64,000 nucleotides of DNA from assembly GCA_961205875.1 (NCBI GenBank), contig OY540814.1, positions 9,592,993 to 9,656,992 of the forward strand, given 5' to 3'. The DNA comes from Sialis fuliginosa (taxonomy: Eukaryota; Arthropoda; Insecta; Megaloptera; Sialidae). Every line of letters begins with the position of its first letter. Within the stretch, counting starts at the first letter, position 1. Below, piece after piece: positions 6,150 through 64,000 of this stretch. The notes below the pieces were generated by a model. That model was given only the letters and a program-made list of their open reading frames with translations. It made no database searches and was not told where the DNA came from. The position numbers were made by a program, and so were the translations under genes.

Positions 6150-6305
6150 TACATAGGTATAAGAAAGTAATACATAAACTAAAAATATACACCTTAACCA
6201 CAATAAAACAATGTCACTAGACACGTGTTTTATTGTGTATATTTGTAGTTTAAGTGACTAAAAAACCACAGTTTCTCCGTTTTTCCAGTAGTAAGAAAGT
6301 AATAA
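6150..6305 (-). mobile_element. Decayed hammerhead-satellite copy
   Basis: On the minus strand the order is ACACGTGTC, TAGTGACATTG, then TTATTGTGGTTAAGGTGTAT and TTTTTAGTTT, the same order as the intact hammerhead foldback at 63361-63511. Here the hammerhead is cut off within the conserved core and replaced by an inverted, imperfect copy of the box (about 6229-6258). The flank at 6259-6300, with CGTTTTTCCAGTAGTAA, also matches the flank at 63305-63360 in reverse, so the family is longer than the foldback. Confidence 0.6.
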
Positions 6306-7030: not shown

Positions 7031-7787
7031 CAGCCACACAAAAAAGTATGTGATACCAAAAATGCGACCTATATAGCATTGTAATACCTATTAATCGAGC
7101 ATAGTCGAAATCCAAATTTTTGTAATTTTCTGCTTACCAGTTTTTTTTTATTTGAGCTTGAATTTTATGTTTCGTTAACTATTTCCAAAAAAAGTGTGCG
7201 ATACCAAAAAATCGACCTATATACTGCCCTGCTAAGCACAAATATGGTATCTGCATTTAGATGAAAGTAGAGAAAATTCAGTTTCTATTTTTAAATTGTT
7301 GCCATGCATTTAATACTTGCTAACAATTATAAATAAAGTTTTTATCTAAAGTAATTTCTTCAGGTGAATTCTTTTTTTGAATTATAAATGTGAACAATAA
7401 GCCAATTTACTGTAACTACTCTTTACTTAAACGAAAACAAAAAGGTGGTTTTTATTAGAAAAAACAAGTATTTATACCATATTTAACACTAGTAAGATGA
7501 CGGAAGATATTGATAATGCCATTTTGTACTAAACTCAATTTTGACAAAATTGTCAGATACCACATTTGTGCTTAGCAGGGCAGTATAGCATTGTAGTATT
7601 GGTCGAGCATAGTCGAAATCCAGATTTTTTGAATTTTCTGCTTACTAGTTTTTTTTTCATTTGAGCTTAAATTTTGGGTTTAAGTTGAATTTTTTCAAGT
7701 TGGCTAAACCCAAAATTCAAGCTCAAATAAAAAAACAATGCTATATAGGCCGCTTTTTTGGTATCGCAAATTTTTTTTGTGTGACTG
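7031..7787. mobile_element. Mariner-like MITE with internal tandem duplication
   Basis: The termini are inverted: CAGCCACACAAAAAA on the left and the reverse of CAGTCACACAAAAAA on the right. The similarity continues for about 50 bp through GATACCAAAAA and CGACCTATATAGCATTG. Inside, the left half is present twice in tandem (about 7045-7180 and 7196-7680 without the nested insert), and an inverted copy closes the element. A TA precedes the left end; the right flank does not show a clean TA. No transposase is present, so the element is non-autonomous. Confidence 0.65.
7224..7583. mobile_element. Nested 360-bp TIR MITE
   Basis: It has near-perfect 30-bp inverted termini starting CTGCCCTGCTAAGCACAAAT. 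It is flanked by TATA, which fits a TA or TATA duplication. It interrupts the second tandem unit of the outer MITE. The first unit preserves the empty-site sequence CGACCTATATAGCATTG, so the insertion can be verified within this locus. No coding capacity. Confidence 0.8.
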
Positions 7788-17275: not shown

Positions 17276-17646
17276 GCTGGACAAAAGACAGACAGACAAA
17301 AGACAAACTCCCAAAAGGCAGACATGGACAAAAGGCAGACATACACAAAAGGCAGACTCCCAAAAGGCCTATATGGACAAAAGGCCGACATCCAAAAGCA
17401 GACATGGACAAAAGGCAAACTCCCAAAAGGCCTATATGGACAAAAGGCCGACATCCAAAAGCAGACATGGACAAAAGGCAAACTCCCAAAAGGCAAACTC
17501 CCAAAAGGCAGACTCCCGAAAGGCCGATATGGACAAAAGGCAGACTCCCAAAAGGTCGACATGAACAAAAGGCAGACACCCAAAAGGCAGACATGGACAA
17601 AAGGCAGACATAGACAAAAGACCGACATCAACAAAAGGCAGACATG
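17276..17646. repeat. Minisatellite, about 15-17 bp units
   Basis: The core is AAAAGGCAGAC followed by either a TCCC or an ATGGAC spacer, giving units of 15 to 17 bp. A higher-order unit of 63 bp is repeated (compare 17361 and 17424). The array is open in several frames on both strands, giving overlapping frames of 61 to 155 codons, because the unit has no stop in most frames. Overlapping frames on both strands show that these are not proteins. It begins just after a LINE/SINE tail and ends just before a family R fragment. Confidence 0.9.
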
Positions 17647-17659
17647 ATTATGATTTTAT

Positions 17660-25450: not shown

Positions 25451-26068
25451 TCTATATTTTATATATAAAGCTCAACGTGTCTCTGTCTGTCTGTCCGTTA
25501 GTGCGCTTATCACTCGAGAACCACTTATCCGATTTTTTTTAATTCATAGGTACGTTCTCTAGTCAGGCTATAGGCTTTATTTTGTTACGTTAGGTAACAT
25601 AACAAATAAGCAGTGACGATAATAATAAATCAAATCGGAAAAAAATTTGCCGTCGGCGCGCTGTTTTGCAATACACTGCCTAAACCGTTCAATATTGAAC
25701 AAAATAATATGTTAAAGAATTGTGTAGAATCAAAAGATCTACAATAAAGTTCGCGACACCATATATCTAACATTTGTATTTAAGCCACAATGACTGCTTT
25801 TATGTTACAAAGAAAATTAAAAATATTTGGGTTCTATTTACGTGGACTTATGACCTGCAAAACATTAATCTTAAAACCCGTATCGCGGCGTGCGGCAATG
25901 AGAGAACGTGCCAACTAGACGCTGGACAGAGGGAACAGGCCGGTATTCTTTTGATTGTCAATTGTTTATTTTGTTTTCAATAATTAATTTTTAAATTTAA
26001 ATAGAACAAAAATTATTTTTACTTTTTGTTCTGATTCGCTTTTGTTAGGTAGGTAATTTTACAACTGG
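25451..26068 (+). mobile_element. Helitron-like element, copy 1 (3' end lost)
   Basis: It aligns with the two complete copies at 43481 and 54157 from the TATATATAAAGCTCAACG start, through ATCACTCGAGAACCACTTAT, GTTACGTTAGGTAACATAAC and GACTTATGACCTGCAAAACA, to the TTTTGTTAGGTA box near the 3' end. The terminal hairpin and CTAG are not preserved. A segment at about 25880-25945 has been replaced by a GC-richer sequence. The short frames inside are relics. Confidence 0.65.
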
Positions 26069-31718: not shown

Positions 31719-32279
31719 AGGTAGAGTGGGGTAATCACGAACGTGGAGTAATCGTAAATTCAGTGGTTTCAGTGTGCTCTAAGAGGAAAAGTAATATTCC
31801 CTCTGCCAGGTAATAATTGATATGTAATTAAATAGTATTTGATATCAACAGTTTTGATTATAATATGATCCTAATCTCAAAAAAAAAAAATGTTTATTTT
31901 TTTATGCTCGTTGAGTAATGACGAACGAATTAAATGAGAAAATTCCAAATGTAAAAAAGACTGATGAAAACTAAAACTAGAAAAAGTGCGAGAAATCGCA
32001 ATATTTTTAAAGAAAATAACCAAATGAAAAAGACTAATGAAGTACCAAGTAAAAATGAAGAAGAAATGAAGATGTTGATAAAGAAAATAACTATGTGTGT
32101 TATTGTTATGAAAAATATCAAGATGTGTCGAGTAACATTGTTTTATTGTGGTTAAGGTATATATTTTTAGTTTAAATTGATTATATAACAATTTTAAACA
32201 ATTTATCTATTGGCTTCCTACTCAGATTTTAATTTATTTGATTTTTCCCTTAGGTGTTCGTAACTACCGCATTCTACCT
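31719..32279. mobile_element. TA-flanked MITE carrying a hammerhead-satellite remnant
   Basis: Inverted termini AGGTAGAGTGGGGTAATCAC and, inward from the right, AGGTAGAATGCGGTAGTTAC run for about 35 bp. TA lies at both ends. The pattern GGGGTAATC-CGAAC is one I know from abundant insect MITEs. Inside, 32113-32176 is a remnant of the hammerhead satellite. The three overlapping frames of 63 to 104 codons lie in low-complexity sequence and are not genes. Confidence 0.65.
32113..32176 (+). mobile_element. Hammerhead-satellite remnant
   Basis: GTGTCGAGTAACATTGTTTT, ATTGTGGTTAAGG, TATATTTTTAGTTTAA are shared in order with the foldback at 63361-63511. The catalytic core upstream is missing. It starts within the last part of the hammerhead, at about the stem III/cleavage position. 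Confidence 0.6.
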
Positions 32280-34533: not shown

Positions 34534-34547
34534 ATATGTAGGTACCT
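34534..34547. repeat. Target duplication, left copy
   Basis: ATATGTAGGTACCT here is identical to 42351-42364 at the far side of the Penelope pair. One to four terminal bases are ambiguous because the element end shares them. Confidence 0.8.
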
Positions 34548-35060
34548 TTATTATTGTTTCAAATTGGGATTTTTTTCCAAGGTCAAAATAAAGAAAATTT
34601 AAAAAAAAATTCTTATTTAATTACACATACGTGCATTTATTTCATAAAATAGCTATTTTTTCGAATGTTATAAACATTCTTCTTCAGTGCATAAATTTTT
34701 TTTTTTATATATATATCTACAAAATAATATCACAAAATTAGGAAAAATCCTTTTACAAAATTCAGATAGAAACAGAAAAACAATATTTATTCTACTTACG
34801 CTATGACATTGATCAATCAATTCAGAAAAGAAGGAAAAATATTAAAAATAAACAAAATTAAACTTCAAAAGCATTCTTGCAATTAACGAAAAATATAATT
34901 CTACTTAAAACTAAAAATATATATTCTATTTTAACCACATAATATTTTTCTCCTTCTCTTCCATTCCATCAGTTCCTTACACATTATATTATATTAACAA
35001 TTAATATTTTAAAACCACAAAAAAATTTTTTAAATAATATACGACCATGTGTTTTAAAGA
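34547..35060 (-). repeat. Pseudo-LTR, 3' side of minus copy
   Basis: Direct repeat of 37970-38483 with a constant offset of 3423 bp. It is the 3' part of the unit, ending at the target site. Penelope-like elements characteristically carry such pseudo-LTRs, which come from tandem or partial tandem copies. It includes one hammerhead-like fold. Confidence 0.85.
34635..34696 (-). ncRNA. Hammerhead-like ribozyme, copy 1
   Basis: Same sequence as the copy described at 42167-42228, read on the minus strand. Confidence 0.55.
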
Positions 35061-35233
35061 ATTAGCAAATGACAAGAAACGGAAATAATCAGGTTAAATT
35101 AGTGATGAAATAAACAACAACACACAAACTATTCAAATAGTTACCAACTTAAATTTAGCAAAAAAAAAAAAAAAAACATAGACATATGAAATGACATTTG
35201 TAAATATACAACTGACTTAACCTTTAAAAAAAT

Positions 35234-37957
35234 TCAATCATGAAGTAAATTATGATAATTTTGTTTTAAATAATTAATATTTTCTCTAGAATTAACACTT
35301 AGAGGGTCTTGAATAATATGAATGGACTCACTTATAAGTCTTTTTTTAAGGGACGTTTGATAATCCAATATTTTAACATCATCATAATCAAATTCATGCT
35401 TGAATTTTTGACAGTGGGTTTTTAAGGCTGTAACCTCATTTTTTGCATACTTATGGCTATTAATTCTATTAGAAAGATATTGTTTTGTTTGTCCAATGTA
35501 CGAGGCAGAACAATTATTACAGTTTATTTTGTATATCAAATTTGAGCGTTTACCTTTGTCAATCGGATTTTTAAGGTTAGAAAAAAAAATTTTTGACGTA
35601 TATGAATTTTTGTCAATTAATTTTAAGTTATATTTCTTACTAATCTTTTTTAACTTTTCAGAAAGAACTGGAATATATGGGAATGAAAAATAATTGTTAT
35701 TAGTATCAGTGCTATTATTATCAAGACTATTATTACTTTTGTTTTTTTCCTTAAAATGTGAATCGTTACTGTTAATATTTATGTTCTTTTTTTTATTAAT
35801 TTTATATAAAATACTCTTTAATCTGTTGTTAATAACTTTTTTTATAAATTCAATCGGATAATTATTTATTAAGAAAATATTGTAAACTTTTTTTATAATT
35901 TCTTTTTGATATTTCTGGTTTGTAAAGGTAATCGCTCTATCAAGGATAGCAATAATAACATTTCTTTTATGAGATATTGAAGATATAGAATTAAAATCTA
36001 AATATCTGCCTGACCAAGTATTTTTAGTATACCAAATTGTTTCAATATTACAACTTTTATTGACAATAAGTCTTATATCCAAAAAATTTATCTCCCTTTT
36101 ATCATTTTCAGTTTCAAAAGTAAATTGTAGTCTATTATGGTAAGAATTAAATAATTCACACACATATTCAATTTTATCAATAGGTAAACATGTAAGAATA
36201 TCATCCACATATCTTTAAAAAAAAGGAATATTAAAATTAAATTTTTTAAGTATATCTTCTTGTAAATCATTTAAAATTATATCGGCTAATACCACTGATA
36301 AGGATGAACCCATTGGAGCACCATAAATTTGCATGTAAAATTGATTTTCATATTGTAAATAAGAATTTTTGCAACAGAACTTTAAAGCATTAATAAAATC
36401 AATTTTTTCAATTTTTGTATATTCTTTAATACTTTCCCATTTATTTTCAATTATTTCTATTGTTTTGTCTATTGGTATGTTTGTAAACAATGATTTGACA
36501 TCTAACGATACTAATTTATATTTTGGTGGGATTTTATAGTTGTTGATAAAAGAATGAAATTGCCAAGAATCCTTAACAGTATGATCATTATTGGTTATAT
36601 TTTTTAATATGTTAGCTAGAAATTTAGATAATTTTTGAAAAGGGGAGTTAAATGATGCAACAATCGGTCTGAGTGGGTTGTTCTCTTTATGAATTTTAAT
36701 TAAACCATATATTTGTGGTGGAGTTGAGTTATGTATTTTTAGGTAATTGGCAGTGTTATTATCAATATATTTCTTATCCAGAAAGTTCTGCACTATAGAG
36801 TTATTTTTATTTTGAAAAACATTTGTTGGGTCTTTTTTAATCTTAAGATATGTGTTTTCATCATTAAGCAATTCTAACATTTTAATATTGTAATTATCTT
36901 GATTAATTATAACAGTTTTACTAGACTTATCAGCTTTAATAATTTTGAGGTGGGAATTAGTTTTTAAAAAGTTTTTGGTTTGATTTATGTCAAATAAAAG
37001 TTTTTTGTTACATTTATCCTTATTATTTTTTAAATTGTTGTAAAAATTGTTTAAATTATATGAGAATTCATTTCTAATATTACACTTCTCAATATCACTA
37101 TCTAATTGTTCAATGCCAGACTCAAATGATATTATAATATCCTTTATAGGCATTTTTTTGTAAGGTAGATTAAATTTAGGTCCTAATTTAAGGGTATTTA
37201 AAACGTTGTCAGGGATTACTTCGTTGGTTAAATTAACTACAAAATTATTTGAGTAATCTTTGCTAGGTTCAAATTTTAAATCTTCTGGGTAAATTATGCT
37301 ATTTTTATTCTTATTGAGATTAGTTTTATTAATTTTATTTTTACCTGGATTTGTTTCATTTATATCAGTAATTTCAAATTTTCCAATTATACTAAGTGAA
37401 CTGTTAATGTAATTTTTTTTATAAGATTCTTTTCTTTTATTCGAAATTGTTTTTAAGTTATTTAATTTTTTATGGACTTTATTAAATGAAATTTTGTATT
37501 GAGTCTGGAATGAACAATTTTCCAAATAGTAAACTTGATAAATTTCTTCAGTTGTAATTTTATTTTTAAGTGCATAATGATTTTTTTTAATATTATCAGA
37601 AATTTTTTTTAAATTAGTATAACATTCGGAAATTAAAAGTATTAACAATTTATATTTATAATTTTGAAGAATTTTAGCATATCTTTTTCTGTTTTTTAAG
37701 TTATTAGGTTGTATGAAATTGTTCATTTTATCAAATTTACTAATTAAAAACTTAGGAAAAATCTTATTAATTTTACATTGAATTAGAAAAAACTTTCTTG
37801 CTTCCAATCTGGCCTTTGCTACTTGCATCCTTCTCGCCTGTCCTATTAATTTGCAGATATCCTTCCGGTTCCTGTACTTCCATAGGTCTTCTTCTGTTAT
37901 CCATGATTTTCTTCCATTGGAATTTTTGAATATATTTTGGTTTATGTATATGACCAT
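35234..37957 (-). pseudogene. Penelope-like RT/GIY-YIG protein, minus copy, interrupted
   Basis: This is the same protein as the intact plus copy: a reverse transcriptase followed by a GIY-YIG endonuclease, acting in target-primed retrotransposition. It reads as 580 codons (36215-37957), then the rest in the same frame (35234-36208, 324 codons from a GTG). A single in-frame stop, a one-base difference in a T/A run, separates them. It falls just before the RYVDD codons, so the N-terminal product would lack the catalytic aspartates and the endonuclease. Otherwise the two translations agree over their full length. Neighbouring pseudo-LTRs and hammerheads are intact, so its RNA could still be mobilised by the other copy. 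Confidence 0.9.
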
Positions 37958-37969
37958 ATTGACGAATAA

Positions 37970-38483
37970 TTTATTATTGTTTCAAATTGGGATTTTTTTC
38001 CAAGGTCAAAATAAAGAAAATTTAAAAAAAAATTCTTATTTAATTACACATACGTGCATTTATTTCATAAAATAGCTATTTTTTCGAATGTTATAAACAT
38101 TCTTCTTCAGTGCATAAATTTTTTTTTTTATATATATATCTACAAAATAATATCACAAAATTAGGAAAAATCCTTTTACAAAATTCAGATAGAAACAGAA
38201 AAACAATATTTATTCTACTTACGCTATGACATTGATCAATCAATTCAGAAAAGAAGGAAAAATATTAAAAATAAACAAAATTAAACTTCAAAAGCATTCT
38301 TGCAATTAACGAAAAATATAATTCTACTTAAAACTAAAAATATATATTCTATTTTAACCACATAATATTTTTCTCCTTCTCTTCCATTCCATCAGTTCCT
38401 TACACATTATATTATATTAACAATTAATATTTTAAAACCACAAAAAATTTTTTTAAATAATATACGACCATGTGTTTTAAAGA
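37970..38483 (-). repeat. Pseudo-LTR, 5' side of minus copy
   Basis: It matches 34547-35060 over 514 bp. One A-to-T difference in the A7T6/A6T7 run near 38447 was noticed. It runs 96 bp further toward the centre than its mirror in the plus copy. Confidence 0.85.
38058..38119 (-). ncRNA. Hammerhead-like ribozyme, copy 2
   Basis: Same fold as the copy at 42167-42228, in the 5' pseudo-LTR of the minus copy. Confidence 0.55.
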
Positions 38484-38931
38484 GAAGGAGAAAAATATTA
38501 TGTGGTTAAAATAGAATATATATTTTTAGTTTTAAGTAGAATTATATTTTTCGTTAATTGCAAGAATGCTTTTGAAGTTTAATTTTGTTTATTTTTAATA
38601 TTTTTCCTTCTTTTCTGAATTGATTGATCAATGTCATAGCGTAAGTAGAATAAATATTGTTTTTCTGTTTCTATCTGAATTTTGTAAAAGGATTTTTCCT
38701 AATTTTGTGATATTATTTTGTAGATATATATATAAAAAAAAAAATTTATGCACTGAAGAAGAATGTTTATAACATTCGAAAAAATAGCTATTTTATGAAA
38801 TAAATGCACGTATGTGTAATTAAATAAGAATTTTTTTTTAAATTTTCTTTATTTTGACCTTGGAAAAAAATCCCAATTTGAAACAATAATAAATTATTCG
38901 TCAATATGGTCATATACATAAACCAAAATAT
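38481..38931 (+). repeat. Pseudo-LTR, 5' side of plus copy
   Basis: Matches 41904-42354 with an offset of 3423 bp. It includes the first nine codons of the reading frame, so the frame starts inside the repeat. Confidence 0.85.
38744..38805 (+). ncRNA. Hammerhead-like ribozyme, copy 3
   Basis: Same fold as the copy at 42167-42228. The predicted cleavage site would lie after base 38795, about 110 bp upstream of the start codon, and would set the RNA 5' end of the plus copy. Confidence 0.55.
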
Positions 38932-41629
38932 ATTCAAAAATTCCAATGGGAGAAAATCATGGATAACAGAAGAAGACCTATGGAAGTACAGGAACCGGAA
39001 GGATATCTGCAAATTAATAGGACAGGCGAGAAGGATGCAAGTAGCAAAGGCCAGATTGGAAGCAAGAAAGTTTTTTCTAATTCAATGTAAAATTAATAAG
39101 ATTTTTCCTAAGTTTTTAATTAGTAAATTTGATAAAATGAACAATTTCATACAACCTAATAACTTAAAAAACAGAAAAAGATATGCTAAAATTCTTCAAA
39201 ATTATAAATATAAATTGTTAATACTTTTAATTTCCGAATGTTATACTAATTTAAAAAAAATTTCTGATAATATTAAAAAAAATCATTATGCACTTAAAAA
39301 TAAAATTACAACTGAAGAAATTTATCAAGTTTACTATTTGGAAAATTGTTCATTCCAGACTCAATACAAAATTTCATTTAATAAAGTCCATAAAAAATTA
39401 AATAACTTAAAAACAATTTCGAATAAAAGAAAAGAATCTTATAAAAAAAATTACATTAACAGTTCACTTAGTATAATTGGAAAATTTGAAATTACTGATA
39501 TAAATGAAACAAATCCAGGTAAAAATAAAATTAATAAAACTAATCTCAATAAGAATAAAAATAGCATAATTTACCCAGAAGATTTAAAATTTGAACCTAG
39601 CAAAGATTACTCAAATAATTTTGTAGTTAATTTAACCAACGAAGTAATCCCTGACAACGTTTTAAATACCCTTAAATTAGGACCTAAATTTAATCTACCT
39701 TACAAAAAAATGCCTATAAAGGATATTATAATATCATTTGAGTCTGGCATTGAACAATTAGATAGTGATATTGAGAAGTGTAATATTAGAAATGAATTCT
39801 CATATAATTTAAACAATTTTTACAACAATTTAAAAAATAATAAGGATAAATGTAACAAAAAACTTTTATTTGACATAAATCAAACCAAAAACTTTTTAAA
39901 AACTAATTCCCACCTCAAAATTATTAAAGCTGATAAGTCTAGTAAAACTGTTATAATTAATCAAGATAATTACAATATTAAAATGTTAGAATTGCTTAAT
40001 GATGAAAACACATATCTTAAGATTAAAAAAGACCCAACAAATGTTTTTCAAAATAAAAATAACTCTATAGTGCAGAACTTTCTGGATAAGAAATATATTG
40101 ATAATAACACTGCCAATTACCTAAAAATACATAACTCAACTCCACCACAAATATATGGTTTAATTAAAATTCATAAAGAGAACAACCCACTCAGACCGAT
40201 TGTTGCATCATTTAACTCCCCTTTTCAAAAATTATCTAAATTTCTAGCTAACATATTAAAAAATATAACCAATAATGATCATACTGTTAAGGATTCTTGG
40301 CAATTTCATTCTTTTATCAACAACTATAAAATCCCACCAAAATATAAATTAGTATCGTTAGATGTCAAATCATTGTTTACAAACATACCAATAGACAAAA
40401 CAATAGAAATAATTGAAAATAAATGGGAAAGTATTAAAGAATATACAAAAATTGAAAAAATTGATTTTATTAATGCTTTAAAGTTCTGTTGCAAAAATTC
40501 TTATTTACAATATGAAAATCAATTTTACATGCAAATTTATGGTGCTCCAATGGGTTCATCCTTATCAGTGGTATTAGCCGATATAATTTTAAATGATTTA
40601 CAAGAAGATATACTTAAAAAATTTAATTTTAATATTCCTTTTTTTAAAAGATATGTGGATGATATTCTTACATGTTTACCTATTGATAAAATTGAATATG
40701 TGTGTGAATTATTTAATTCTTACCATAATAGACTACAATTTACTTTTGAAACTGAAAATGATAAAAGGGAGATAAATTTTTTGGATATAAGACTTATTGT
40801 CAATAAAAGTTGTAATATTGAAACAATTTGGTATACTAAAAATACTTGGTCAGGCAGATATTTAGATTTTAATTCTATATCTTCAATATCTCATAAAAGA
40901 AATGTTATTATTGCTATCCTTGATAGAGCGATTACCTTTACAAACCAGAAATATCAAAAAGAAATTATAAAAAAAGTTTACAATATTTTCTTAATAAATA
41001 ATTATCCGATTGAATTTATAAAAAAAGTTATTAACAACAGATTAAAGAGTATTTTATATAAAATTAATAAAAAAAAGAACATAAATATTAACAGTAACGA
41101 TTCACATTTTAAGGAAAAAAACAAAAGTAATAATAGTCTTGATAATAATAGCACTGATACTAATAACAATTATTTTTCATTCCCATATATTCCAGTTCTT
41201 TCTGAAAAGTTAAAAAAGATTAGTAAGAAATATAACTTAAAATTAATTGACAAAAATTCATATACGTCAAAAATTTTTTTTTCTAACCTTAAAAATCCGA
41301 TTGACAAAGGTAAACGCTCAAATTTGATATACAAAATAAACTGTAATAATTGTTCTGCCTCGTACATTGGACAAACAAAACAATATCTTTCTAATAGAAT
41401 TAATAGCCATAAGTATGCAAAAAATGAGGTTACAGCCTTAAAAACCCACTGTCAAAAATTCAAGCATGAATTTGATTATGATGATGTTAAAATATTGGAT
41501 TATCAAACGTCCCTTAAAAAAAGACTTATAAGTGAGTCCATTCATATTATTCAAGACCCTCTAAGTGTTAATTCTAGAGAAAATATTAATTATTTAAAAC
41601 AAAATTATCATAATTTACTTCATGATTGA
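38906..41629 (+). CDS. Penelope-like reverse transcriptase with GIY-YIG endonuclease
   Basis: An intact 907-residue polyprotein of a Penelope-like retroelement, a class related to telomerase reverse transcriptases. The N-terminal 300 residues are lysine- and asparagine-rich. RT motifs follow: KADKSSKTVI (about 341), PQIYGLIKIHK, PLRPIVASFNSP, LVSLDVKSLFTNIP with the first catalytic Asp near 486, YGAPMGSSLS (about 545) and RYVDDI with the Asp pair at 585-586. The C-terminal endonuclease spans about 805-890: LIYKINCNNC, SYIGQT, an Arg in LSNRINSHK, H and H of THCQKFKHEF, and the Glu of LISESIHI. The CxxC plus His pattern is typical of animal Penelope proteins. The ATG sits in the 5' pseudo-LTR. 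Length is slightly above the usual range I know for the group. Function is inferred from motifs only. Confidence 0.95.
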   Translation: MVIYINQNIFKNSNGRKSWITEEDLWKYRNRKDICKLIGQARRMQVAKARLEARKFFLIQCKINKIFPKFLISKFDKMNNFIQPNNLKNRKRYAKILQNYKYKLLILLISECYTNLKKISDNIKKNHYALKNKITTEEIYQVYYLENCSFQTQYKISFNKVHKKLNNLKTISNKRKESYKKNYINSSLSIIGKFEITDINETNPGKNKINKTNLNKNKNSIIYPEDLKFEPSKDYSNNFVVNLTNEVIPDNVLNTLKLGPKFNLPYKKMPIKDIIISFESGIEQLDSDIEKCNIRNEFSYNLNNFYNNLKNNKDKCNKKLLFDINQTKNFLKTNSHLKIIKADKSSKTVIINQDNYNIKMLELLNDENTYLKIKKDPTNVFQNKNNSIVQNFLDKKYIDNNTANYLKIHNSTPPQIYGLIKIHKENNPLRPIVASFNSPFQKLSKFLANILKNITNNDHTVKDSWQFHSFINNYKIPPKYKLVSLDVKSLFTNIPIDKTIEIIENKWESIKEYTKIEKIDFINALKFCCKNSYLQYENQFYMQIYGAPMGSSLSVVLADIILNDLQEDILKKFNFNIPFFKRYVDDILTCLPIDKIEYVCELFNSYHNRLQFTFETENDKREINFLDIRLIVNKSCNIETIWYTKNTWSGRYLDFNSISSISHKRNVIIAILDRAITFTNQKYQKEIIKKVYNIFLINNYPIEFIKKVINNRLKSILYKINKKKNININSNDSHFKEKNKSNNSLDNNSTDTNNNYFSFPYIPVLSEKLKKISKKYNLKLIDKNSYTSKIFFSNLKNPIDKGKRSNLIYKINCNNCSASYIGQTKQYLSNRINSHKYAKNEVTALKTHCQKFKHEFDYDDVKILDYQTSLKKRLISESIHIIQDPLSVNSRENINYLKQNYHNLLHD

Positions 41630-41903
41630 ATTTTTTTAAAGGTTAAGTCAGTTGTATATTTACAAATGTCATTTCATATGTCTATGTTTTTTTTTTTTTT
41701 TTTGCTAAATTTAAGTTGGTAACTATTTGAATAGTTTGTGTGTTGTTGTTTATTTCATCACTAATTTAACCTGATTATTTCCGTTTCTTGTCATTTGCTA
41801 ATTCTTTAAAACACATGGTCGTATATTATTTAAAAAATTTTTTTGTGGTTTTAAAATATTAATTGTTAATATAATATAATGTGTAAGGAACTGATGGAAT
41901 GGA

Positions 41904-42354
41904 AGAGAAGGAGAAAAATATTATGTGGTTAAAATAGAATATATATTTTTAGTTTTAAGTAGAATTATATTTTTCGTTAATTGCAAGAATGCTTTTGAAG
42001 TTTAATTTTGTTTATTTTTAATATTTTTCCTTCTTTTCTGAATTGATTGATCAATGTCATAGCGTAAGTAGAATAAATATTGTTTTTCTGTTTCTATCTG
42101 AATTTTGTAAAAGGATTTTTCCTAATTTTGTGATATTATTTTGTAGATATATATATAAAAAAAAAAATTTATGCACTGAAGAAGAATGTTTATAACATTC
42201 GAAAAAATAGCTATTTTATGAAATAAATGCACGTATGTGTAATTAAATAAGAATTTTTTTTTAAATTTTCTTTATTTTGACCTTGGAAAAAAATCCCAAT
42301 TTGAAACAATAATAAATTATTCGTCAATATGGTCATATACATAAACCAAAATAT
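41904..42354 (+). repeat. Pseudo-LTR, 3' side of plus copy
   Basis: Direct repeat of 38481-38931. It ends at the target duplication and includes a copy of the start codon region, as expected if the RNA template ran from one unit into the next. Confidence 0.85.
42167..42228 (+). ncRNA. Hammerhead-like ribozyme, copy 4
   Basis: The order is that of a type I hammerhead. Stem I 5' strand is ATTTATGCA. The core CTGAAGA (42176-42182) fits CUGANGA. One unpaired A follows, then stem II GAATGTT/AACATTC with a 3-base loop (42184-42200). Next come GAA (42201-42203), stem III AAAATAGCTATTTT, which is self-complementary, an A as the cleavage base (42218), and stem I 3' strand TGAAATAAAT. Stem I has an internal loop, as natural hammerheads do. 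Hammerheads are known in Penelope-like pseudo-LTRs. The extra A and the UUA cleavage triplet are departures from the best consensus. Confidence 0.55.
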
Positions 42355-43509: not shown

Positions 43510-43571
<62 letters not shown>

Positions 43572-44399
43572 CGTTAGTTACCTTATCACTCGAGAACCAC
43601 TTATCCGATTTACGAGTTTTTTTTTTAATTCATAGGTACGTTCTCTGGCCAGGTTATAGGCGATATTTTTTTACGTTAGGTAACATAACAACAAAGCAGT
43701 GACGATAATAGTAAATCAAGTCGGAAAAAATTTTGCCGTCGGCGCGCTGTTTTGTAATACGCTGCCTAAACCGTTCAATATAGAACAAAATAATGTAATA
43801 AAGAATTGTGTAGAATCAAAAGTTCTTCAATTAAGTCCGCGACACCATATGTCTAACTTTTATATTTTAGCCACAATGACTGCTTTTATGTTACAAAGAA
43901 AACATAAAATATTTGGGTTTTGTTTACATGGACTTATGACCTGCAAAACATTAATCCATATCGAAATAAATGATTTCATCGTCATAAGTACTTAATGTAG
44001 ATATAGTTTGCCATTTACAGCATCCAATTTGGTCGTATAGTTTAGAAAATATCTTAAAATATATTTATAAAGATAATATCTTAAATGTATGGTGTCGTGC
44101 CGCATCGAAGCAAGTACATCAGACTGGATTCGCGTACGCTCGGTTGTTATTCGGAGTCCCTCGGCTGATCGTTTGTGTTTATTTTGTTTTCAATAATTAA
44201 CATTTAAATTTAAACAGAACACAAATTATTTGTACTTTTTTCTTCTGATTCGTTTTTGTTAGGTAATTTAGGTATTGATAAATTATTATTACAATAATAA
44301 CTAATCGTGTTTGTACTTAATTATTTAAACTATATTTTTCAAAAATCCTAAACAATAATTCCGTAGTCTACGCGAGCGAAGCCGCGTGGGCCCAGCTAG
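43481..44399 (+). mobile_element. Non-autonomous Helitron, copy 2 (complete)
   Basis: It begins TCCTTAATATATATAAAGCT after an A and ends CTAG before a T, the Helitron A|T insertion pattern with no duplication. Just before the end lies the hairpin ACGCG-AGCGAAGC-CGCGT (44370-44387), followed by TGGGCCCAG and CTAG. Inside are ATCACTCGAGAACCACTTAT, GTTACGTTAGGTAACATAAC and GACTTATGACCTGCAAAACA, shared with the other copies. A 98-codon frame inside has no helicase or Rep motif, so the copy cannot move by itself. Confidence 0.8.
43504..43572. repeat. CTGT microsatellite inside Helitron copy 2
   Basis: About seventeen CTGT units in a row. The copies at 25451 and 54157 have only two or three units at the same place. 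Confidence 0.9.
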
Positions 44400-44499
44400 T
44401 ATTTAATATAAGTATCACAAACAACAAATATCATCATAAATCCAACCGTAAAAAACAGCTACTGAAAAAAACACAGTTCTAGCACCCAACACCACTATA

Positions 44500-50808: not shown

Positions 50809-50917
50809 AAAAATGTTAATATTGTATATTAAATACAAATCTCCTAATCATAAAAATTACACATTTTTTAATAGCAAAACTATCAATATTAGACTACTGA
50901 AAAACAAAGAAACTAAA

Positions 50918-50980
50918 CTAAAAATATATACCTTAACCACGTTTAAGTGTATATTTTTAGTTTAAGTGATAAATATCAGA
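50918..50980. repeat. Hammerhead-satellite box in inverted arrangement
   Basis: CTAAAAATATATACCTTAAC followed by CACGTTTAAGTGTATATTTT and TAGTTTAAGTG: two copies of the box face each other with almost no loop. No hammerhead core remains. It is related to 6150-6305 and 63361-63511. Confidence 0.55.
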
Positions 50981-53400
50981 GTTTCAAAAGCTTGCATTCT
51001 AGTTATTTTTATTGTTGCTTTAAAACTTTAAAAGATTCAGTCTGTGAAGATAATACAATTTACTTCACATTTATTTACATTAAAAATTATTTAATGTAAT
51101 TTTGTTTAAATATTTATATCTATGATATAGACAAAAAGTAGATTAATAAATGCATGTACTATGGACTTCAGAAGTAGTCTGCTACCCTAAAGATCAGAGT
51201 CACTTACAACAGATTCCAAAATAATAAGACAAATAACATCGGTTATCTTTTTCTAGGATGAAGCTTATATAGCTACATCATTTTAAATAAAAACACAAAT
51301 ATACGTCCATTTCATTAATTAATTTTATATCAACTTTAACATATTTAAATACTAAAATTCGGAATATATTTTATTACCACAAAATTTACATATACAATTT
51401 TCAATAGATTACATAAAAATTTAATCGTACAAATATAATAATATAATATAATACTATAAACGAATATTACTTCTATATCTAGCAAATGAGTTTCAAAATA
51501 TCAGTCTTTGTTTGGTACCTACATGGAGAAATGATTTAAATATTATAATAATCGAATGGGAGGAGCCTACTAAGTTTGTGATAAGCGAAAATGAATGAAA
51601 ACTGGTCGACCACTTCTGCATGCGACTTTACATAATTCAGTGTTTTTTTTTTGTTTTTTTTTTTAAGAAAACATAAATTGAAAATACGGTGAAAATTAAT
51701 CACGTATTATGAGAGAGAATGAATATAATATGGTGTAAAATTCAAAAGTCACAACACGAATATAACACAATCATGGTCGCGAACTACTCCACCGAACCAA
51801 AATACAAATGTAACCGCGAGTTTTAGGTTATGTGTACGAACCGCTATATCAACCAGACAATTCATTTGAGAACAGCAACTATGTAGAGAGTAATTCTAAC
51901 TTGTATAACCCACCTGTCTATTGTTATCAGACGCAATTCTGGTAAACTTTAAACAGAGCTTAATGAAAACTGCTTTTAACCGGTTCTATGTACTTCGCCT
52001 TCTCTCAACAATACCTGACTATTTGTAACAGTTCAAATATTATTTATCGACTTTAGGTGTGAACAAGAAGCTAATAACGCAATATCTACTATTAATTTGT
52101 ACACCCTTTCTATTATTGTTTGTTTTATACAATCGCTTTAGAACAATTCGATTTCACGGATTATTTATAATAAAGGATTATTAAATTCTATTATGAAAAG
52201 ACAAATAACCGAGAAAATACTTTATGTAGGCACATATTACGTATAAATTAAATAAATAAGAAATTCAGAATAGTATTGAAATAATAATATTAATTTATGA
52301 TAAAAATCTTAAGTAAATTGTTTACATCTATAATTACAACTTTACACTTTGTTAATTTATGGTAACAAAGTACACACAATTAGTAATATGAATAAATTAC
52401 AAAGGCGATTAATTCATTCTTCTAAAATTATTTAAAATATCACTTGTGTTTAACATTAAGCGTGCACAATATAAAAGCAAAAACTGTTTTTAATGAAAAT
52501 GGATGCCTACAAGGAAAGTTTGTAAAATATTCCAAGAGACAGCATTATGAAGAGTTTTCCAAACTTACTTTTGAAGATTAAATTTGATAAGGGGAAAATT
52601 CACAGCTTCTCATCTTTAATAATCGATTGATAATAAAGTATCTCAAGCATAGCAGCTAATATCTTTAATCCTTGAACGCTGACTGTAGATGAAGATACAC
52701 TCCATTAGCGATGGTATCTGGTGAATATTTTCTAACCCATCGTCTTCTTCTGTTCACGGAATAACTAACATGTCTACGCAAAGTGCTTAATGTAAATCCT
52801 ATTGTGTGAGTAACGTAATTTAGTAGTGAAGTCAGATGCTGTTGATATTAAAAGCGTACATCTTAATTAAAGGTTTTAGAAGCTTGTGTCTTCGTCTCGT
52901 ACGTCTTCTTATCTTAGATAATTTCAAGGTAGGTGTTACTAAAGGGTTGATTATGTGTTTGTGCAAATATTCCTTTTGTTGACAAAATTCTTGTTATTAA
53001 GTCACTTTGTATGGGGTTTGTTTTTAGGATATATATTGCCATCTTTACATAATTAAGTCTCCGTGTTCATTTAGTGTTAAAATATCAGTTTGAGAAGGGG
53101 TACTTATTAACAGGAAACTATTTTCATGGACTTAATTAATTTTCTATTTACTTTATTATATAGTTTAAAACATCTTGCATCACGTAGTGTTACTTAAATT
53201 ATAGTTTAAACTACAATATATATTCAATACAGTTTCGAAAAAAAATAATAGATGATACGTCCATATTTGGAAAGTCGAGATGTTACCAGATAGAATTTTC
53301 GACCTTTTATATTTGATCAATGAAATGTCTGATTGGTATCGAAGCTATAAAGGAATTGCACAAAAATATATGTCCGAACAATTGGGCGATTAATAAAAAA
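50981..53400. other. AT-rich and unique DNA, nothing recognised
   Basis: Balanced, non-repetitive stretches at 51770-52010 and 52480-52930 could be conserved non-coding DNA. No supported frames. Confidence 0.4.
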
Positions 53401-54156: not shown

Positions 54157-54989
54157 TCCTTAATATATATATATAGTTCAACGTCTGTATGTCTGTCCAT
54201 CCGTTATTGTGCTTATAACTCGACAACTACTTATCCGATTTACGTGTTTTTTTAATTCAAACACATGTTCCTGAACAGGTTATAGATTATATTCTGTTAC
54301 GTTAGGTAACATAAGGAATAAGTAGTTAATCAAGTCGGAAGAAAGTTTGCCGCCAGCGCGCTCTTTTGCAATACGCTGCCGAAACTGTTAAATATTGATA
54401 AATATAATGTATTAGAGATTTGTGTAAAATCAAAAGATCTAAAATAAAGTCCGTGATAGCATAATACCTAACTTATATATTTGTCACAATGACTGCTTTT
54501 ATGTTCCAAAGAAAATTAAAAAATGTTTTGTTGACGTGGATTTATGACCTGCAAAACAATAATCCTTAATATAAATGATTTCATCGTCATACATACTTAC
54601 TGTAGATATAATTTGCCCTTTACAGCATCCAATGTGGTCATATAGTTTAGGAAATAACTTTAAATAAGTTATATACAATAAAATATTATTAATAACGCAT
54701 GAACTAAGAAGTACTGTGTCGGCGCGGGGTAGAAAGAATGATTTACATATACTCTTTTGATTGTCAATTATTTATTTTGTTTTCAATAATTAACTTTTAA
54801 ATATAAGCAGAACAAAAATTATTTGTACTTTTTGTTTTGATTCGTTTTTGTTAGGTAATTTAGGTGTTGATTATAGTCATTATTACAATAATAACTAATC
54901 GTGTTTGTACTTAATTCAACAATATTTTTCAAAAATCCTAAACAATAATTCCGTAATCCACGCGAGCGAAGCCGCGCGGGCACAGCTAG
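54157..54989 (+). mobile_element. Non-autonomous Helitron, copy 3 (complete)
   Basis: Starts TCCTTAATATATATATATAG after an A and ends in the hairpin CGCG-AGCGAAGC-CGCG, GGGCACAG and CTAG before a T. It aligns with the copy at 43481 along its length, is shorter by 86 bp, and has just two CTGT-type units. No helicase or Rep coding. Confidence 0.8.
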
Positions 54990-55025
54990 TCTACCATAAT
55001 TTGTAGTCTTACTCAATCAGTCCAG

Positions 55026-63300: not shown

Positions 63301-63360
63301 TCTTATTTTCTTATCTTTAAGTTACTACTGGAAAAACCGAGAAACAGTGGTTTCTTAGAC

Positions 63361-63511
63361 ACTTAAACTAAAAATATACACCTTAACCACAATAAAACAA
63401 TGTTTACAGTTCCAGACTGTTAGGCTCCTGATGAGGACTTCTTGTGAAGTCGAAACACGTGTCGAGTGACATTGTTTTATTGTGGTTAAGGTGTATATTT
63501 TTAGTTTAAGT
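63361..63511 (+). mobile_element. Foldback hammerhead satellite (retrozyme-like)
   Basis: Perfect 42-bp inverted arms (63361-63402 and 63470-63511; box TTATTGTGGTTAAGGTGTAT then ATTTTTAGTTTAAG) enclose a 67-nt loop that contains a whole hammerhead. A left flank with GGAAAAACCGAGAAACAGTG (63310-63357) is shared, in reverse, with 6259-6300, so the family is longer than the foldback. There is no coding capacity. Short non-coding elements with type I hammerheads, probably moved by Penelope-like enzymes, are known in animals as retrozymes. Assigning this copy to them is inference. Confidence 0.65.
63416..63474 (+). ncRNA. Hammerhead ribozyme, type I
   Basis: Core CTGATGA (63428-63434), one unpaired G, stem II GACTTC/GAAGTC with loop TTGT (63436-63451), GAA (63452-63454), stem III ACACGTGT (63455-63462), cleavage base C at 63463 (GUC triplet). 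Stem I is CTC/GAG, then a GG bulge, then TGTTA/TGACA with one G-T pair. All conserved core bases are present. Only the extra purine before stem II is unusual, and it is shared with the Penelope copies. Confidence 0.75.
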
Positions 63512-64000
63512 ATCTTTAAGTTGATATGAACAAATAATCAAAATTCGTTCTTGGATCAGTAATGAATGCTATTAAATAGTTAATGATTTTTTAGAGCTTA
63601 TTTAAGACATAATAATATACAAATTTATATAAAATATTAAATAATACTAAATACAGAGTGGCGCCATTTGTTGGATTATTTCTTCCTTAAAATATAAGAG
63701 AATTCGAACGAGACCTAGACCTTTTAAATATTGATGCGATGAGACTAACCAAAACCTAGTTTCGTTTCGTTAACAAACAAACAAATAAGTTTACAGTTCA
63801 AATACATAACCAGTATTTTGAATAACACGCAGTTCAAAAAGAAACCAACAGATGACCCACCTTTTAGTTTGAATAATATTTAAAGAACTATGTTCATATT
63901 ACAGTAAAAAATATGTATTTACAATGATACCAAATATGACCTTTGTTGTTATTAAAAATATACTCCTTAAAAATTCATTTGAATTTTCAATTTACCTTAT
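63512..64000. other. AT-rich DNA to the window end
   Basis: A compositionally balanced stretch at 63650-63770 has no frame or repeat signature. Confidence 0.45.

What the first reader, a model, noticed from the sequence alone, without database searches (positions are those of the whole stretch)
63361..63511. Complete hammerhead in the loop of a perfect 42-bp foldback
The loop holds all conserved hammerhead bases, with stem II GACTTC/GAAGTC, a self-complementary stem III and a GUC cleavage site. The flanking arms are perfectly inverted, which is unlikely by chance. A ribozyme carried in the loop of a long hairpin could be presented or silenced by the hairpin. I do not recall this arrangement being described.
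Basis: partly seen in the sequence, partly recalled or inferred. Interest (0 to 1): 0.85.

Follow-up and report, generated by a model that had tools for sequence, protein, structure and literature searches.

The report
Hammerhead jumping element inserted head-to-head
The hairpin with a hammerhead ribozyme in its loop is one of several hundred copies of a tiny insect jumping element whose RNA appears to be copied into DNA from both ends of the cut target, so that most insertions leave a mirror-image pair; this links such ribozyme elements to the machinery of Penelope retrotransposons.

Summary
In detail: a type I-like hammerhead lies at 63424-63467 between 43-bp perfectly inverted arms (63361-63403/63469-63511). 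The core alone is chance-level and below Rfam's cut-off; copies make the case. The exact 36-nt core occurs 633 times in this insect genome (control 0).

The foldback is an insertion footprint: two DNA copies of one ~141-nt RNA (R), joined head-to-head at a junction that differs between loci (52 distinct of 67), between 12-nt target duplications. One end carries a 36-nt 'tail', the other does not (58 of 67; two tails in 0). In 40 loci picked by tail alone, 28 are such pairs and 6 are single copies starting at R1-4, so R is a stand-alone RNA. Head-to-head layout, one-sided tail and short duplications are published marks of Penelope-like elements; five of five such inserts examined here, one in this window, show one tail.

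Best reading: a non-autonomous hammerhead element inserted from both DNA ends by Penelope-type machinery. Driver identity and self-cleavage are unproven. Folding suggests this truncated foldback exposes the ribozyme and full palindromes bury it, as a by-product. New variant of a known kind.

The parts
63312..63323 (.). left target-site duplication TATCTTTAAGTT
   Evidence: 12-nt exact match to 63511-63522
63324..63360 (-). 'tail' (R106-141, 36 nt in the model, 37 nt here) of the first cDNA; holds the stem-loop AGAAAC-CACT-GTTTCT when read on the minus strand
   Evidence: BLAST of the R model, (R63-141 at 63403-63324)
63361..63403 (-). tail-side cDNA, R105 to R63: left arm of the foldback
63406..63419 (-). 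inner tip of the tail-side cDNA (antisense of R1-14); R15-62 is missing from this arm
   Evidence: read by eye from the sequence against the R model
63416..63511 (+). second cDNA without tail, R10-105: hammerhead plus right arm
   Evidence: 100% match to R10-105
63424..63467 (+). type I-like hammerhead; stem II 63436-63441/63446-63451, stem III 63455-63456/63461-63462, predicted cut after 63463
63469..63511 (+). right arm, perfect complement of 63361-63403
63511..63522 (.). right target-site duplication TATCTTTAAGTT (first T shared with the element end)
6161..6304 (+). second copy in the window: no-tail arm left, tail arm right, hammerhead core lost at the junction, 12-nt duplication AAGAAAGTAATA
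   Evidence: arms; duplication read by eye from the sequence printed
32125..32175 (+). single-armed fragment R53-103 ending at the no-tail site
50892..50985 (.). decayed copy, tail remnant at left; the right end is ambiguous: BLAST runs to R124, which could be a decayed second tail, or site 1 followed by a decayed duplication
   Evidence: R79-124 at 50941-50985, 85%; not resolved
34547..42354 (.). Penelope-like element pair, head-to-head; 38-nt tail only at the right end (42317-42354); flanks share about TATGTAGGTACC
38882..41629 (+). open frame of the Penelope-like element (915 aa from stop to stop, first ATG 38906): reverse transcriptase and GIY-YIG endonuclease
   Evidence: RVT_1 E 5.6e-11 and GIY-YIG E 1.1e-4, both over the cut-off, when its two domains are scanned apart; the whole frame gave no such hit
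38753..38781 (+). hammerhead-like core in the pseudo-LTR of the Penelope-like element (also at 42176 +, 38110 -, 34687 -)
   Evidence: exact places; recognised by eye, not listed by Rfam at E<=10

Best explanation
The foldback is one copy of a short non-autonomous retroelement. Its RNA (R, ~141 nt) starts at AGTCTGGAACTG, holds a type I-like hammerhead with its cut after R57, and ends in two reverse-transcription start sites: site 1 at R105 and site 2 at R141, 36 nt further on (the 'tail', with an AC-rich stem-loop). A Penelope-type endonuclease/reverse transcriptase makes a 12-nt staggered cut in AT-rich DNA and lets both 3' ends prime a cDNA on R. One cDNA starts at site 2, the other at site 1. 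Each runs towards the 5' end of R, stops or jumps at its own point, and the two are joined head-to-head. The result is tail - antisense R - sense R between duplications. The template is linear R that has not been cut by the hammerhead, since copies run through the cut site to R1-4. SHOWN by sequence: two opposite R copies, variable junctions, 12-nt duplications, one tail per insertion in the resolved loci, single R copies, arm variants shared within a copy. INFERRED: the driver is a Penelope-like protein; both DNA ends prime; the hammerhead cleaves; the truncated arm exposes it here.
For: (1) Sample chosen by tail only, the first 40 of the 80 exact-tail places listed for C1: 28 of 40 have a second opposite arm ending at site 1 (R99-114), 4 of 40 a second arm with another outer end, 8 of 40 no second arm scoring 24 bits or more; 6 of those 8 are single R copies starting at R1-R4; no 12-mer of an opposite tail in any of the 40. 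(2) In 67 unique loci found by foldback or hammerhead: one tail and one site-1 end in 58, both tails in 0, 52 distinct junctions of 67. (3) Duplications: longest exact flank match >=12 nt in 37 of 67, control 0 of 670 pairings of unrelated flanks; >=9 nt in 45 of 67 against 5 of 670. (4) Arms share variants within a copy: 87 mismatches over 50 loci, 10,000 permutations mean 117.9, minimum 102. (5) The same layout in the genome's own Penelope-like inserts: 5 of 5 examined (two families) are head-to-head with exactly one tail at the outer ends (read by eye). (6) Published Penelope marks match: one-sided 31-bp tail, mostly head-to-head inverts, 8-10 bp duplications (PMC3846280, passages); internal start at two sites with the tail between them, cutting and extension of both strands, uncut hammerhead RNA as the main template, start in an AC-rich stem-loop 111-118 nt into the frame with the hammerhead cut at 26, i.e. 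85-92 nt apart by subtraction (PMC11167929 main text). In R the sites lie 48 and 84 nt after the cut. (7) The window's element has RVT_1 and GIY-YIG.
Against: No autonomous Penelope-like element carrying R's own ends was found; R resembles the window's element only weakly (local score 32, reached by 2 of 300 shuffles). The in vitro Anolis work saw no difference in start site between top and bottom strands (PMC11167929), which does not predict a strict one-tail rule. Six of 67 loci (L052, L054, L061, L066, L070, L073) hold the tail arm plus only the inner part of the second arm, with flank matches of only 3-5 nt; two-ended priming on plain R does not make these unless the RNA read through from upstream. 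The decayed window copy at 50892-50985 may have two tails. A first, cruder arm comparison that counted deletions went the other way (within 0.099, between 0.085 differences per nt; 268 of 300 permutations at or below the observed). Only 2 of the 6 single full-length copies have a 12-nt flank match. One Penelope insert (C4) joins at nearly the same codon on both sides (residues 126/127), as self-priming would; it also holds a third, tandem copy. Four of the five Penelope inserts sit in (TA)n, which R copies mostly do not, by eye. GIY-YIG was found in the window's element but not in the end pieces of the two other families. Rfam lists no hammerhead in the Penelope stretches at E<=10 (one search also misses the one in R), and R itself prefers a non-hammerhead fold by 11 kcal/mol.
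Confidence: 0.78

Rival explanations
1. The whole foldback is the transcribed unit: a ~240-nt hairpin RNA is reverse transcribed from its 3' tail, and the polymerase jumps across the hairpin, giving variable central deletions.
For: Explains the single tail, the shared arm variants and the six loci with only the inner part of the second arm.
Against: 6 of 40 tail-selected copies end at R1-R4 with no second arm; a hairpin RNA truncated at random would not stop there so often. The Penelope inserts, with much longer arms (about 3.8 kb in the window), show the same one-tail rule with different junctions.
Confidence: 0.12
2. Self-priming: a cDNA or antisense RNA snaps back and copies itself, as proposed for rotifer Penelope elements.
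For: Published proposal (PMC3846280, passages); near-palindromic Penelope insert on C4; 27 of 60 resolved junctions overlap by 1 nt or more.
Against: Snap-back would give both outer ends the same start site, or run on into inverted flanking DNA. Instead the ends lie at two fixed sites 36 nt apart, one per side, and flanks are direct 12-nt repeats.
Confidence: 0.06
3. A foldback DNA transposon (MITE) that happens to carry a hammerhead.
For: Short, dispersed, long inverted repeat, duplication of nearly constant length.
Against: The two ends differ (tail versus no tail), so there is no terminal inverted repeat; inner junctions differ between copies; single-armed copies exist.
Confidence: 0.03
4. 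Chance: a hammerhead-like string inside an unrelated inverted repeat.
For: The loose descriptor hits 34.5% of shuffles; Rfam score below threshold.
Against: 633 exact copies of the core, control 0; loci with at least one intact core on some strand: 59 of 67 (selected by hammerhead or foldback) and 24 of 40 in the tail-selected sample.
Confidence: 0.03

Closest known systems
Animal non-LTR retrozymes (Cervera and de la Pena 2020, PMC7229834; results parts 1-2 and discussion read)
   Same: Non-autonomous, small, non-LTR, type I hammerhead, many copies, duplications longer than 4 bp; Penelope-like elements suspected there as the driver.
   Different: Retrozymes sit in tandem repeats and give circular RNA; here copies are mostly head-to-head pairs or single, and the template looks linear with a fixed 5' end. 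One tandem locus (176-nt units, L082) was met.
Penelope-like elements (PMC11167929 main text, PMC3846280 passages)
   Same: Head-to-head inverted copies, one-sided ~30-40 nt tail, short duplications, hammerhead upstream of two internal start sites.
   Different: R codes for nothing; 12-nt duplications against 8-10 in the rotifer passages; dispersed AT-rich sites rather than the (TA)n of four of the five Penelope inserts examined.
Hammerhead type I, Rfam RF00163
   Same: All core bases and stem order; a 2-bp stem III with a tetraloop as reported for the second axolotl family, and a self-complementary tetraloop as in the first (PMC7229834).
   Different: One extra purine between A9 and stem II; scores 17.7 bits against a cut-off of 34.
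L1 twin priming (recalled)
   Same: Both ends of the cut prime cDNA, giving an inverted junction.
   Different: In L1 the two cDNAs come from different parts of the RNA and inversions are a minority; here the same stretch is copied twice from two fixed sites.

Membership tests
Hammerhead ribozyme type I (RF00163) | conserved core CUGANGA..GAA and NUH with three stems | tested here: met
   63424-63467
Hammerhead ribozyme type I (RF00163) | covariance-model score over gathering | tested here: not met
   17.7 bits against 34; hence hammerhead-like, not filed as a member
Hammerhead ribozyme type I (RF00163) | self-cleavage | not testable with these tools
   needs an RNA assay
Animal non-LTR retrozyme | type I hammerhead in a small non-coding element with duplications over 4 bp | tested here: met
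   (hammerhead-like)
Animal non-LTR retrozyme | tandem repeats of the unit | tested here: not met
   by exact cores, 1 of 87 hammerhead loci on C1 is a tandem array, 8 are opposite pairs and 78 single
Animal non-LTR retrozyme | circular RNA | not testable with these tools
   no RNA data; the fixed R1 end speaks for a linear template
Penelope-like element | reverse transcriptase plus GIY-YIG frame | tested here: not met
   R is non-coding; the window's 34547-42354 pair does meet it
Penelope-like element | head-to-head copies with a tail on one side only | tested here: met
   58 of 67 and 28 of 40 loci; 5 of 5 Penelope inserts examined
Foldback DNA transposon | matching terminal inverted repeats | tested here: not met
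   one end is tail, the other is not, in 58 of 67 loci

The most novel reading that the evidence does not exclude
Two-ended, asymmetric target-primed reverse transcription is the normal integration mode of Penelope-type machinery. A protein dimer cuts both strands and starts one cDNA at site 2 and the other at site 1 on two RNAs, so every complete insertion is a head-to-head pair with exactly one tail. A 141-nt hammerhead RNA with only these sites is a sufficient passenger, kept uncut by a competing hairpin (R46-72) until insertion leaves a foldback that frees the ribozyme. (Lowered from 0.40 to 0.36 on re-check: the published assay saw no strand difference in start site, and one decayed copy may have two tails.)
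Probability: 0.36. Interest if true: 0.8.

Novelty: new variant of a known kind. Interest (0 to 1): 0.63.

Why it matters
Who mobilises the hammerhead elements of animals is open: Cervera and de la Pena name Penelope-like elements a 'strong candidate' on co-occurrence (PMC7229834 discussion). How Penelope-like elements integrate is open too: self-priming was hypothesised and said to need further experiments (PMC3846280, passages), while the in vitro work leaves the later steps unvalidated (PMC11167929). A ~141-nt passenger present in hundreds of copies carries what looks like the whole cis set in one short sequence and records each insertion's start and stop points, so it makes the mechanism directly testable. 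The one-tail rule is a sharp statement that assays can break.

Tried and rejected
Rejected: a designed switch (junctions differ between copies, single copies exist); foldback transposon (ends differ); a viroid-like palindromic circle (in the copies looked at, R1 is not preceded by the R 3' end); RT stops clustering in the competing hairpin R46-72 (apparent in the foldback-selected set, not on inspection of the hammerhead-only set; not claimed). The upstream repeat of L082 turned out to be a separate MITE-like family.

Led nowhere: Pfam on the whole 915-aa frame gave nothing significant, NCBIfam nothing, PDB by sequence only weak hits; scanning the domains apart worked for the window's element. 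AlphaFold of the Penelope protein was unusable (mean pLDDT 33.6) and was not searched. An exact 29-nt core in viral contigs: 0. Of three contig-end stretches fetched for telomere repeats, one read N and two lay in Penelope arrays. The 2014 and 2017 papers on Penelope hammerheads are not held, so overlap with them is unchecked.

Full report
WHAT IS THERE. Arms 63361-63403 and 63469-63511 pair perfectly over 43 bp. The loop holds a hammerhead-like core with one extra G between A9 and stem II and a 2-bp stem III with loop ACGT. On its own the motif is weak: a loose descriptor hits 34.5% of 200 shuffled windows and Rfam scores it at 17.7 bits against a cut-off of 34.

IT IS A REPEAT. The window lies in a 392-Mb genome in 20 contigs. 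The host is an insect, on 42 matches to the odorant-receptor family 7tm_6 (that the family is insect-specific is recalled). The foldback query gave 1370 first-look candidates, of which 40 were scored and matched. The exact 36-nt core occurs 633 times and an exact 24-nt piece of the tail 535 times, both with control 0.

ANATOMY. Aligning copies showed that the foldbacks consist of two opposite copies of one sequence. I modelled it as R, 141 nt: 5' end (C)AGTCTGGAACTG, hammerhead, cut after R57, site 1 at R105, then a 36-nt tail to site 2 at R141. In the window copy the minus-strand arm is R141-63 plus the tip R14-1 (by eye), and the plus-strand arm is R10-105. So the 'loop' is the hammerhead of one copy whose partner arm lost R15-62.

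TESTS ON 67 LOCI (40 by the foldback query, 27 by the hammerhead-only query; 3 duplicates dropped). One end at site 1 and one at site 2: 58; other plus tail: 6; other plus site 1: 2; site 1 twice: 1; tail twice: 0. By set: 40 of 40 and 18 of 27. Distinct junction pairs: 52 of 67. Flank matches peak at 12 nt (25 loci) and 13 nt (10 loci); >=12 nt in 37 of 67 against 0 of 670 control pairings. Of the 60 junctions resolved as one left and one right piece, 27 overlap by 1 nt or more, 13 are blunt and 20 carry extra letters. These loci were chosen by query, so the completeness of one arm is partly ascertainment.

TEST FREE OF THAT BIAS. I took the first 40 of the 80 exact-tail places listed for C1; the list itself is the first 100 of 535. 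By the rows, 28 of 40 have a second, opposite arm ending at R99-114; 4 of 40 have one ending elsewhere (R68, R85, R94, R94, the last cut by the fetched stretch); 8 of 40 have none of 24 bits or more, so a very short tip would be missed. Of those 8, six start at R1-R4 (L110, L130, L135, L137, L138, L140) and two are truncated at R69 and R93. No 12-mer of an opposite tail occurs in any of the 40. The six singles are the key: R is a unit by itself, and its RNA runs through the hammerhead cut site. Only L110 and L135 of the six have a 12-nt flank match. Among the 100 exact tails listed, the closest two are 1,804 bp apart, so no pair with two exact tails shows there. On C1, 37 of 87 exact-hammerhead loci have one exact tail within 300 bp, 50 none and 0 two. 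One decayed copy in the window (50892-50985) is ambiguous and may have two tails.

ONE SOURCE FOR BOTH ARMS. In 50 loci where both arms cover R62-101, arms of one copy differ at 87 places, against a permuted mean of 117.9 and a minimum of 102 in 10,000 permutations. At R92, 11 of 11 left-arm variants recur in the right arm (which has 13). A cruder count that included deletions within arms gave the reverse; I trust the restricted one because internal deletions swamp the other. Both arms thus come from the same RNA or sister RNAs.

THE PENELOPE CONNECTION. The window holds a Penelope-like element as a near-identical head-to-head pair, 34547-42354. Its protein has RVT_1 (E 5.6e-11) and GIY-YIG (E 1.1e-4), both over the curated cut-offs when the domains are scanned apart; for a second family RVT_1 was found (E 1e-9), while GIY-YIG was not found in the end pieces of the second and third. 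The right end has a 38-nt tail and the left none; the flanks share about TATGTAGGTACC. Of the further inserts listed I looked at the outer ends of four, in two families: each has exactly one tail and lies in (TA)n; one of them (C4) holds a third, tandem copy. All three Penelope families have hammerhead-like cores upstream of the frame with the same extra purine and different but pairing stem II (by eye); Rfam does not list them. The published Anolis protein cuts and extends both strands, starts inside the RNA at two sites with the tail between them, and mainly uses RNA not cut by its hammerhead; it showed no start-site difference between strands (PMC11167929, main text read). The rotifer paper reports one-sided tails, 8-10 bp duplications and mostly head-to-head inverts, and proposes self-priming (PMC3846280, passages). 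It also reports a gene mobilised by pseudo-LTRs in trans, so passengers are possible.

WHY NOT THE RIVALS. A hairpin-RNA master does not explain singles that stop at R1-R4. Self-priming predicts equal outer ends or inverted flanks. A DNA transposon needs matching ends. None fits the one-tail rule with 12-nt direct duplications as well as two separately started cDNAs. Against my reading stand six loci with only the inner part of a second arm, one near-palindromic Penelope insert, and the missing autonomous partner. L082, whose RNA carried an upstream MITE-derived stretch, shows that read-through templates occur, which could account for the six.

DOES THE HAIRPIN MATTER. In secondary-structure predictions R prefers a hairpin (R46-72) that uses up the GAAA strand and the cut site: hammerhead-fold probability 1.3e-8. 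In the window foldback the arms tie up the competing strand and it rises to 7e-4. In three full palindromes (both strands) it falls to 6e-58 to 7e-58. Loop-loop contacts and folding kinetics are not modelled. So presenting and silencing are plausible consequences, not shown functions.

NOVELTY. Eight full-text searches, judged by their listings, showed no paper that describes a non-autonomous hammerhead element with Penelope-type head-to-head insertions; most subscription papers and the two key Penelope-hammerhead papers are not held. I rate it a new variant of a known kind.

Noticed in passing
L082 (G000:C1:39235900-39237200), 260-966: Four near-identical 176-nt tandem units joining MITE-derived sequence to R2-83 with an intact hammerhead; looks like a retrozyme-style array arising from one read-through copy.
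   Followed up: partly
G000:C10:1622-41441 and places near the ends of C3, C5, C7, C9: Penelope-like units, in part as long tandem arrays of ~3.6-kb units and often head-to-head, lie within about 150 kb of contig ends; possibly subtelomeric.
   Followed up: partly
L083-L087 around the match: Another dispersed short repeat with MITE-like ends (AGAGGTGTACCGGAATTCC), 993 first-look candidates.
   Followed up: no
window 17280-17647: Minisatellite of 16/32/63-nt periods (CAAAAGGCAGACATGG) that is open over 164 codons on the minus strand.
   Followed up: no
window 7647-7740: Hairpin on the minus strand hit weakly by several microRNA families, all below their cut-offs.
   Followed up: no
window 25477-26051, 43553-44400, 54183-54990: Three copies of a dispersed repeat beginning in a GTCT-rich tract; two of them end in GCGAGCGAAGCCGCG..GCTAGT.
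   Followed up: no
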